A stretch of DNA of 34,190 nucleotides from Hydrogenobacter sp. (GTDB lineage Bacteria > Aquificota > Aquificia > Aquificales > Aquificaceae): positions 1 to 34,190 of the forward strand of contig JBEULM010000046.1 of the NCBI GenBank assembly GCA_041287335.1, in the 5' to 3' direction. The notes under the pieces were generated by a model that saw only the letters and a list, made by a program, of their open reading frames with translations, did not search any database and was not told the origin of the DNA. Position numbers and translations under genes: made by a program. Position 1 is the stretch's first letter, and the number at the start of each line of letters is the position of its first letter. This document shows positions 32,781 to 34,190 of this stretch, in pieces.

Positions 32781-33872
32781 TCAGTACTCTCTCTCTATTT
32801 TTATAGCCTGGTTGTTAGACATCTTTACTTCCACAAGCCAACCTGTTTGGAGGTTTGTTAGACAAGCATAGCCTGTCATGTATGTGTGTTTTTGATACTC
32901 GCAGTATGTGTTTTCTGTTACGCCTATAGGACTACTGTAGGTGTTTAAGGTGAATGCGCTTGAATCTTTGTTAACTACGATTCCCTTTAACTCAAATGGG
33001 TGCATAGGTGGTTGTGGCATAGTAGATGAGGTCATCATACATTTAGCCGGATTTTCGTTTTCCACCTTTATAGCTGTCAAAGTTGTTGACACGGAAGGAT
33101 CTTCTAAAACTTTTACTTCAACACACATACCTACACCTATTTTACCTACACATGCGCTTGCGAAATAATTTACGTCATTTATCTCGCAGACGGTATTTGA
33201 GGTTAAATTGATAGTGTAAGTTTTTCCCATCCAAGTACCTGTAAAGCTATTTCCACTCACATTTAGCACGCTTACGTATAACTTATTGTCATAAATTTTG
33301 CCTTGTATATCCTGAGGTGTAAGGGGCATCATCCTTACTTGTGTCACCTGCCACGGATTGGTTGATGTGTTTACATCAAAGTCTTTAAGTACGAAATCAA
33401 CGACGAGCTTTCCAGTAGCGAAGGGTTGAACAACTCCGTTGAACCTTATATAACATCTGTCTGTAGGACATTGTACAGTGTTGGGTTTGTTAGGGTTGTT
33501 TGAATCCCAATTTACAAAAACCGCCTGATGTGTTTGTTGACTGTTATCCGTTATGGTGAGGTTTTTATCCATTACTACTTCAAGCCTGTTGTAAGTTCCC
33601 TGAGGTATACCTGTTGTTGTTATGTACTCAAGCACACCACTGAGTTTTGCAAGATCTACCTCAAGCCCTCCTTGGTTTGAGAAAAGATTAACCTTTTGCT
33701 GACACTGATTATCGGAGCAAAGGTTGACTTCGTACACTTTAACAAGTATGGAAGGGTACATACTCATATCGTCAGTAAAATAGAGAGAAACTGAAGGATT
33801 ACCACCTTGAGTTCCTCCACCACCACAGGAGAAGATAAAGACAGTGACAACCCACAAAAATAATCTCTTCAT
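32781..33872 (-). CDS. DUF4382 lipoprotein with two DUF5666-like repeats
   Basis: This 363-residue protein starts with a lipoprotein signal (MKRLFLWVVTVFIFS, then C16-G-G-G-G), so it is probably anchored in the membrane. Residues about 27-175 match DUF4382: VSLYFTDDMSMYPSILVKVY, LAKLSGVLEYITTTGIPQGT, YNRLEVVMDKNL. Two later segments (about 190-280 and 292-363) are beta-rich repeats of the DUF5666 type, each with a G-K/V-x-x-G...T-x-C-E pattern (FTGTWMGKTYTINLTSNTVC; FTLNTYSSPIGVTENTYCEY) and paired Cys residues that could form disulfides. The function is unknown. The start codon follows GGGG about 6 nt upstream, inside an inverted repeat. Confidence 0.83.
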   Translation of the reverse strand: MKRLFLWVVTVFIFSCGGGGTQGGNPSVSLYFTDDMSMYPSILVKVYEVNLCSDNQCQQKVNLFSNQGGLEVDLAKLSGVLEYITTTGIPQGTYNRLEVVMDKNLTITDNSQQTHQAVFVNWDSNNPNKPNTVQCPTDRCYIRFNGVVQPFATGKLVVDFVLKDFDVNTSTNPWQVTQVRMMPLTPQDIQGKIYDNKLYVSVLNVSGNSFTGTWMGKTYTINLTSNTVCEINDVNYFASACVGKIGVGMCVEVKVLEDPSVSTTLTAIKVENENPAKCMMTSSTMPQPPMHPFELKGIVVNKDSSAFTLNTYSSPIGVTENTYCEYQKHTYMTGYACLTNLQTGWLVEVKMSNNQAIKIEREY

Positions 33873-33874
33873 CT

Positions 33875-33888
33875 CTAACCCCGGTTAG
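33875..33888. repeat. Inverted repeat over the lipoprotein ribosome-binding region
   Basis: CTAACC-CC-GGTTAG is a perfect 6-bp inverted repeat that ends 2 nt before the lipoprotein ATG. The GGGG that would serve as ribosome-binding site lies in it, so folding of the mRNA could hide the site. Confidence 0.55.
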
Positions 33889-33891
33889 CTA

Positions 33892-33913
33892 AGCTGTACA
33901 AAACTGTACAGCT
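33892..33913. repeat. Perfect 9-bp inverted repeat
   Basis: AGCTGTACA-AAAC-TGTACAGCT is a perfect 9-bp stem with a 4-nt loop, 20 nt upstream of the lipoprotein start codon. It could be an RNA hairpin or a dimeric operator. Confidence 0.6.
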
Positions 33914-33945
33914 CAGGCCGTGCTATTTGTATCCCGCCTTTTTCA

Positions 33946-33984
33946 GGTAAGCCTATGACACGGCTGGCGGTATTTAGGCTTACC
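33946..33984. repeat. Perfect 10-bp inverted repeat with 19-nt loop
   Basis: GGTAAGCCTA (33946-33955) and TAGGCTTACC (33975-33984) are exact inverse complements. They enclose a 19-nt GC-rich loop. Confidence 0.6.
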
Positions 33985-34029
33985 ATAGCCCCCGCTAACT
34001 CCATATATCTTAAGTTAAGAGTATCCCTT

Positions 34030-34070
34030 TGCATAGACAGATATCCCACTTATAGACATCTATCTATGCA
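34030..34070. repeat. 13-bp inverted repeat with one compensated mismatch
   Basis: TGCATAGACAGAT (34030-34042) pairs with ATCTATCTATGCA (34058-34070) except at one C/A position. In the minus-strand RNA that position is G-U, so all 13 positions can pair. Confidence 0.6.
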
Positions 34071-34129
34071 TCGGGTTTAGGACTGTGCCTGAAAACCCCC
34101 TGAAATAAGGATTTCCAGACAGTAAGCCC

Positions 34130-34151
34130 AGTGCCTTACTCCTGAGGCACT
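34130..34151. repeat. 7-bp inverted repeat with extendable stem
   Basis: AGTGCCT (34130-34136) and AGGCACT (34145-34151) form a perfect stem. A T-G and an A-T pair can extend it to 9 bp around a CTCC loop. Confidence 0.5.
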
Positions 34152-34190
34152 CATACCGCTCATCAGACAGGTTCTTCAAAGACCTATCCA

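What the first reader, a model, noticed from the sequence alone, without database searches (positions are those of the whole stretch)
33873..34190. Hairpin-dense, gene-free 318-nt segment upstream of a lipoprotein gene
In a window where genes otherwise touch or overlap, this stretch has no recognisable gene but five sizeable inverted repeats in 280 nt (9-13 bp for the best three). One mismatch becomes a wobble pair only on the minus strand, which hints at selection for RNA structure on that strand. It could be a structured noncoding RNA, a long regulated leader, or the right end of a transposon with its guide-type RNA.
Basis: seen in the sequence. Interest (0 to 1): 0.65.

Follow-up and report, generated by a model that had tools for sequence, protein, structure and literature searches.

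The report
Guide-RNA transposon ends in ribosome-binding sites
The hairpin-rich stretch is the remains of two nested bacterial transposons that encode guide RNAs; the one next to the gene belongs to a family that inserts exactly into genes' ribosome-binding sites and supplies a substitute, and its knotted guide-RNA scaffold persists in front of dozens of ordinary genes across the Aquificota, even in genomes where the matching nuclease gene was not found.

Summary
The segment is real structure on the minus strand and consists of two modules. (A) 34019-34190 is the right end of an IS607-type element: the last codons of a TnpB gene overlapping a guide-RNA end. (B) 33879-33986 is the right end and guide-RNA scaffold of a second IS607 family. 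In the window it is an internally deleted relic (MITE) into which A has jumped. RNA-B folds into a hairpin with two pseudoknots plus a 3' hairpin, with overwhelming covariation, and matches no Rfam family. 82 of 136 Aquificota genomes carry it, up to 35 copies each. In 151 of 161 examined copies a start codon follows 2-12 nt after its 3' end (8.8% at random positions). Sixteen full-length parents all have a Shine-Dalgarno (SD) sequence at the left junction, and an empty site in a relative (AAGGAGG|TAGTATTG) shows insertion at the GG inside the SD; the element's own ...ACCAGG then replaces it. Published IS607 TnpBs use the TAM AGGAG, the same motif. Some genomes without any detectable matching TnpB keep 18-35 solo copies, some at orthologous genes (htpX, hsp20, hfq, ftsH), with pseudoknots intact, suggesting domesticated mRNA leaders. 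The leader function is inferred, not shown.

The parts
34019..34190 (-). Module A: right end of an IS607-type element (IS-A); C-terminal codons of TnpB-A overlapping its putative guide-RNA 3' region; ends ...GCAAAGGGATACTC
   Evidence: 7 further copies in own genome, 84-99% identical; upstream sequence of other copies encodes the TnpB Zn-finger C-terminus; full-length parents are 510-aa TnpB, NF040570/PF07282
34060..34190 (-). last 42 codons of tnpB-A (runs off the contig end)
   Evidence: frame continues in parents
34025..34075 (-). terminal hairpin of module A
   Evidence: 98.5% of cells paired in 10 sequences, 3 pairs changed on both sides
33987..34018 (-). internally deleted remnant of tnpB-B (TTAACTTAAGATATATGGAG, then TTAGC...), the sequence into which IS-A inserted
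   Evidence: same deletion junction in G000 C57; the left half of the MITE lies at the end of contig C58, followed by an IS607 TnpA
33879..33986 (-). Module B (RNA-B): right end and guide-RNA scaffold of IS607-B, 108 nt
   Evidence: covariance model match 121 bits; parents carry IS607 TnpA and TnpB-B
33946..33984 (-). helix P1 of RNA-B (33976-33984 with 33946-33954); its loop holds the 5' strands of both pseudoknots
   Evidence: all 9 pairs show double-sided changes over 102 sequences
33934..33970 (-). pseudoknot PK1 of RNA-B (33966-33970 CCGCC with 33934-33938 GGCGG)
   Evidence: 100% paired; C-G to G-C exchange in 17 of 102 sequences
33917..33964 (-). pseudoknot PK2 of RNA-B (33958-33964 with 33917-33923)
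   Evidence: 99% paired; all 7 pairs with double-sided changes
33889..33916 (-). 3' hairpin P3 of RNA-B
33879..33884 (-). CCGGGG, the right terminus (CCAGG in the consensus): IS607 exchange GG and replacement Shine-Dalgarno, 6 nt before the start codon
32781..33872 (-). downstream gene: lipoprotein with DUF4382 and DUF5666-like domains, ATG at 33870-33872

Best explanation
The segment is two nested IS607-type TnpB element ends. The inner one (RNA-B) belongs to a family that inserts at the GG inside a gene's Shine-Dalgarno (SD) sequence, a few nt before the start codon. Shown: the parents carry a serine recombinase TnpA and/or a TnpB with an intact RuvC triad; the left junction is AGGAGG; the right end is ...ACCAGG followed about 6 nt later by a start codon; an unoccupied relative has the uninterrupted SD. 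Inferred: the element's AGG takes over as SD, so insertion is tolerated even in ribosomal and other essential operons; the RNA scaffold plus the following ~20 nt (SD spacer and first codons) is the TnpB guide, which would cut SD-bearing empty alleles (TAM AGGAG) and so maintain the insertion; internally deleted copies such as the one in the window are mobilised or maintained in trans. Many copies are then reduced to promoter, RNA-B, SD-like AGG and start codon, and stay as 5' leaders. The persistence of all helices in genomes without a detectable TnpB-B suggests that the host now uses the folded leader, most simply as an mRNA 5'-stabilising or translation-tuning element.
For: Copies in own and related genomes. 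Parents: IS607 TnpA NF033518 (1.3e-66) and TnpB TIGR01765/TIGR01766, D227/E290/D359 invariant in 11 proteins, partial model with Cas12f/Cas12k/ISFba1-TnpB as best structural matches. Spacing: 151 of 161 copies have a start codon 2-12 nt downstream, against 8.8% of random positions and 25% of AGGAGG sites. 16 of 16 left junctions SD-like, 14 with GGAGG. Empty site: G107 GGATTTTTAAGGAGG|element|...ACCAGG|TAGGATTG, relative G038 GGATTTTTAAGGAGGTAGTATTG. Literature: IS607 inserts at GG without target duplication (PMC6188088, PMC10711439); IS607 TnpB TAM is AGGAG in 18 of 22 strains (PMC11061315). Covariation: one orthologous htpX locus in 8 species; TnpB-B-less genomes. Nested structure of the window. 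rpsT: seven relatives have a plain GGAGG SD where G012 and G017 have RNA-B.
Against: No expression, binding or cleavage data. The short solo copies lack a recognisable left end, and SD remnants upstream of them are not enriched (29 of 106 against 20-32 in control windows), so their origin by insertion is inferred. The window copy's terminus is CCGGGG, a poor SD. Downstream genes are functionally mixed, so there is no obvious regulon. Three congeners of the 35-copy genome have no confident copy, so the leaders are not indispensable. Absence of TnpB-B was judged by one protein query at E <= 1e-10, so very divergent relatives could be missed. The positional bias could partly be survivorship.
Confidence: 0.86

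Rival explanations
1. RNA-B is purely selfish debris: IS607-B ends and MITEs land at many GG sites and only those before start codons survive, because elsewhere they damage genes; structure is kept only by recent transposition and TnpB use.
For: Autonomous parents exist in many genomes; the window copy and C57 share one deletion junction, i.e. a MITE; distribution is patchy.
Against: G012 and G017 have 35 and 18 diverged copies and no detectable TnpB-B, yet the pseudoknots are 98-100% intact with compensatory changes; the same orthologous gene carries the leader in up to nine genomes with covariation at that one locus.
Confidence: 0.35
2. RNA-B is originally a host cis-regulatory RNA (riboswitch or protein-binding leader) that an IS607 element later captured as its guide scaffold.
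For: Solo leaders in TnpB-B-free genomes, -10 boxes directly upstream of P1 (40 of 155 copies against about 5-20 at shifted positions), orthologous positions, very high conservation of the unpaired AAAUA and AUACAAAUA stretches.
Against: Downstream genes are unrelated in function; no alternative structure hiding the SD was noticed; insertion into an SD is directly seen for the full-length elements.
Confidence: 0.15
3. The solo RNAs act in trans as guides for another TnpB or a TldR-type repressor.
For: TldR regulators use TnpB-derived guide RNAs (PMC13418256, abstract seen; the TnpB link is from general knowledge); the own genome holds many other TnpB genes (15 PF07282 matches).
Against: The guide would be the element's own flank (SD and start codon), whose target lacks the TAM once occupied; all 11 TnpB-B examined keep the catalytic triad; no intact TnpB-B in the own genome or in G012.
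Confidence: 0.08

Closest known systems
IS607-family TnpB with RAGATH-18-derived guide RNA (ISFba1 and relatives, PMC11061315)
   Same: Serine-recombinase IS607 element, TnpB with RuvC triad, structured pseudoknotted RNA at the right end, AGGAG next to the left end (the published TAM), GG exchange site
   Different: RNA-B does not match any Rfam family including RAGATH-18 at the thresholds used; TnpB-B is 540-560 aa with no CxxC zinc finger seen, versus about 390 aa; most copies are solo and sit directly before start codons, which that paper does not discuss (it had no match for 'Shine-Dalgarno')
ISXfa1 / IS607 reRNAs (PMC10711439)
   Same: Pseudoknotted scaffold ending at the transposon boundary, GG crossover at both ends
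   Different: TAM reported there is GGG; no solo leaders described in the passages read
MITE/PATE non-autonomous derivatives of TnpB elements
   Same: Internal deletion with both ends kept (C57; C58 plus window)
   Different: The ends here keep a guide-RNA scaffold and lie at the SD of same-strand genes
Riboswitches and other structured 5' leaders
   Same: Conserved, covarying RNA between promoter and start codon
   Different: No common function of the downstream genes, no visible switch, evident transposon relatives

Membership tests
IS607-family element (module B) | TnpA of the serine-recombinase IS607 type | tested here: met
   L039 3876-4472, NF033518 E 1.3e-66; found in some parents, not in the deleted window copy
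IS607-family element (module B) | insertion at GG without target duplication | tested here: met
   G107 adk junctions against empty sites in G038 and G108
RNA-guided TnpB nuclease (TnpB-B) | RuvC D-E-D triad and TnpB fold | tested here: met
   D227, E290, D359 invariant in 11 proteins; TIGR01766 above cut-off; Cas12f/TnpB structural matches of a medium-confidence model. Activity not testable
RNA-guided TnpB nuclease (TnpB-B) | TAM at the left junction (AGGAG for IS607 TnpBs) | tested here: inconclusive
   16 of 16 left junctions SD-like; cleavage specificity not measured
RAGATH-18 RNA | match to the Rfam covariance model | tested here: not met
   no match at E <= 10 in the window or E <= 0.5 in seven loci
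MITE / non-autonomous derivative | shared internal deletion with both ends retained at two loci | tested here: met
   C57, and C58 plus window
Riboswitch / regulated leader | covarying structure in the 5' UTR | tested here: met
Riboswitch / regulated leader | functionally coherent regulon | tested here: not met
   ribosomal proteins, rho, ftsZ, ilvC, metE, lipoproteins and others
Riboswitch / regulated leader | ligand or protein binding | not testable with these tools
   needs biochemistry
IS607-type TnpB element (module A) | TnpB gene with Zn finger and right-end RNA hairpin | tested here: met
   NF040570 104 bits (cut-off 100), PF07282; hairpin covariation
IS607-type TnpB element (module A) | IS607 TnpA in the same element | tested here: inconclusive
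   partial IS607 TnpA at the end of contig C58 exactly where IS-A should begin; not joined by sequence

The most novel reading that the evidence does not exclude
A transposon guide-RNA scaffold has been domesticated genome-wide as an mRNA 5' leader: IS607 insertions into SD sequences seeded up to 35 leaders per genome in front of housekeeping genes, and hosts that have lost the nuclease keep the double-pseudoknot RNA because it now controls stability or translation of those mRNAs.
Probability: 0.5. Interest if true: 0.9.

Novelty: new variant of a known kind. Interest (0 to 1): 0.78.

Why it matters
It gives a biological reason for the AGGAG TAM of IS607 TnpBs: the motif is the bacterial ribosome-binding site, and the element carries a replacement for what it breaks, so it can live inside essential operons. 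It also supplies a large natural set of TnpB-type guide scaffolds separated from the nuclease, at fixed orthologous genes, with which one can test whether a selfish RNA has become a gene-control element. The RNA family is new to Rfam and has a compact, strongly supported pseudoknotted fold.

Tried and rejected
Known RNA family: Rfam scans gave only chance-level matches. Protein gene across the segment: only the tnpB-A tail. IS200/IS605 filing of module A: first assumed, then set back in favour of IS607 because an IS607-type TnpA stands at the matching contig end, though this is not joined by sequence. SD remnants upstream of the short solos: not enriched. My split of copies by an upstream hairpin was faulty (the two groups overlapped), so only the pooled -10 count is used. 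First register chosen for the module A hairpin was two columns off and was corrected. TnpB relatives in G019, G074, G002 and others mostly lie in elements with inverted-repeat-like ends and do not sit at SDs, so the SD habit belongs to the IS607-B lineage. The tail of the rpsT probe protein was filled in by me; it served only to locate the gene.

Full report
What is there. On the minus strand the 318 nt fold far better than shuffles (z = -8.7; plus strand -5.2), and the inverted repeats are as described. A search of the own genome splits the segment in two: positions 34019-34190 recur 7 more times, mostly at contig ends, and 33879-33995 recurs at other places. Both recur in relatives.

Module A. 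Upstream of other copies lies the C-terminal zinc-finger part of a TnpB; intact parents are about 510-aa TnpB proteins (NF040570, PF07282). The window keeps the last 42 codons and the right end, whose terminal hairpin is 98.5% paired over ten sequences with compensatory changes.

Module B. Twenty-four copies align with one fold: hairpin P1, whose loop pairs twice with downstream sequence (PK1 CCGCC-GGCGG, PK2 GCCGUGU-GCACGGC), then a 3' hairpin and ...TAACCAGG. Covariation is strong in the seed and in 102 distinct sequences (98.2% paired; 28 of 31 pairs with double-sided changes; covariation score 0.68 against 0.18 shuffled and at most 0.12 slid). The pseudoknots were not in the search model, so their covariation is not fitted. 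No Rfam family matches. Full-length parents carry IS607 TnpA and/or a 540-560-aa TnpB (TIGR01765/TIGR01766) with an invariant D-E-D triad and Cas12f/TnpB-like structure. RNA-B is the right end of these elements.

The window copy. Contig C57 holds an internally deleted IS607-B (TnpB N-terminus fused to the right end). The window shows the same junction, and the missing left half ends contig C58, where an IS607-type TnpA begins exactly where module A must have inserted. So IS-A jumped into a MITE of IS607-B upstream of the lipoprotein gene. The contig gap itself was not read.

Insertion into Shine-Dalgarno sequences. Of 161 RNA-B copies, 151 have a start codon of a same-strand ORF 2-12 nt beyond the 3' end (ATG alone 128), against 8.8% (3.5%) of random positions and 12% after SD-like 4-mers; only 25% of AGGAGG sites are followed by a start. 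Sixteen parents with readable left junctions have an SD-like sequence there, 14 with GGAGG. In G107 the adk gene is split as ...TTTTTAAGGAGG|element...ACCAGG|TAGGATTG; relatives G038 and G108 have the uninterrupted ...TTTTTAAGGAGGTAGTATTG and ...AAGGAGGTAGTTTTG. G107 has such insertions before rpsM, rpsN and adk. IS607 is known to insert at GG without duplication (PMC6188088, PMC10711439), and IS607 TnpBs need AGGAG as TAM in 18 of 22 strains (PMC11061315). I found no paper in the held library that connects this with Shine-Dalgarno sequences.

Solo leaders. 82 of 136 Aquificota genomes have RNA-B. G012, whose length equals the published T. albus genome (PMC3035279), has 35 copies and G017 has 18; neither has a TnpB-B match at E <= 1e-10. 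In these two genomes both pseudoknots are 98-100% paired with exchanges such as C-G to G-C in PK1 (a few rows are counted twice because loci overlap). The same orthologous gene carries the leader in several species: htpX in eight species of one genus, hsp20 in five of the own genus, hfq, ftsH, mreB, trxB, rho, rpsT, rpmF, acpP. At htpX alone 10 pairs have double-sided changes. A -10 box stands directly before P1 in 40 of 155 copies, against about 5-20 at shifted positions. At rpsT, seven relatives have an ordinary GGAGG SD where G012 and G017 have RNA-B. Against indispensability, three relatives in G012's genus have no confident copy.

Mechanism. Shown: identity, nesting, SD insertion, conserved fold. 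Inferred: that the terminal AGG serves as SD, that TnpB uses these RNAs as guides against empty SD alleles, and that the leaders have a host function. The most economical function is an mRNA 5'-end stabiliser or translation tuner, since the downstream genes share no pathway and no SD-hiding alternative fold was noticed; this is not tested.

Noticed in passing
L261-L269, L272, L274 (G019, G074, G002, G020): Relatives of TnpB-B (about 45% identical) lie between inverted-repeat-like ends GAGGCTGTTCTAAAAATCC...GGGATTTTTAGAACAGCCTC, suggesting capture of this TnpB by a different, inverted-repeat type of transposon.
   Followed up: partly
L223 (G107:C1:1605500-1620500): Three IS607-B insertions before rpsN, adk and rpsM within about 8 kb of a ribosomal-protein region, each just upstream of a start codon.
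   Followed up: partly
window 34019 / G000 C58: Element A seems to recombine at a TC dinucleotide (TTTGG-TC-TTAGAAACC on the left, GATAC-TC-TTAACTT on the right) rather than the usual GG of IS607; its copies are not tied to start codons.
   Followed up: no
G000 contig ends C4, C33, C35, C41, C46, C49, C51, C61: The draft assembly breaks at copies of element A, so several contigs, including the window's, can probably be joined through them.
   Followed up: partly
G000 C60, L132 and orthologues L200, L201, L203, L205: hsp20 carries an RNA-B leader in all five genomes examined of the own genus, with a promoter-like box just upstream; a good candidate for a functional test.
   Followed up: partly
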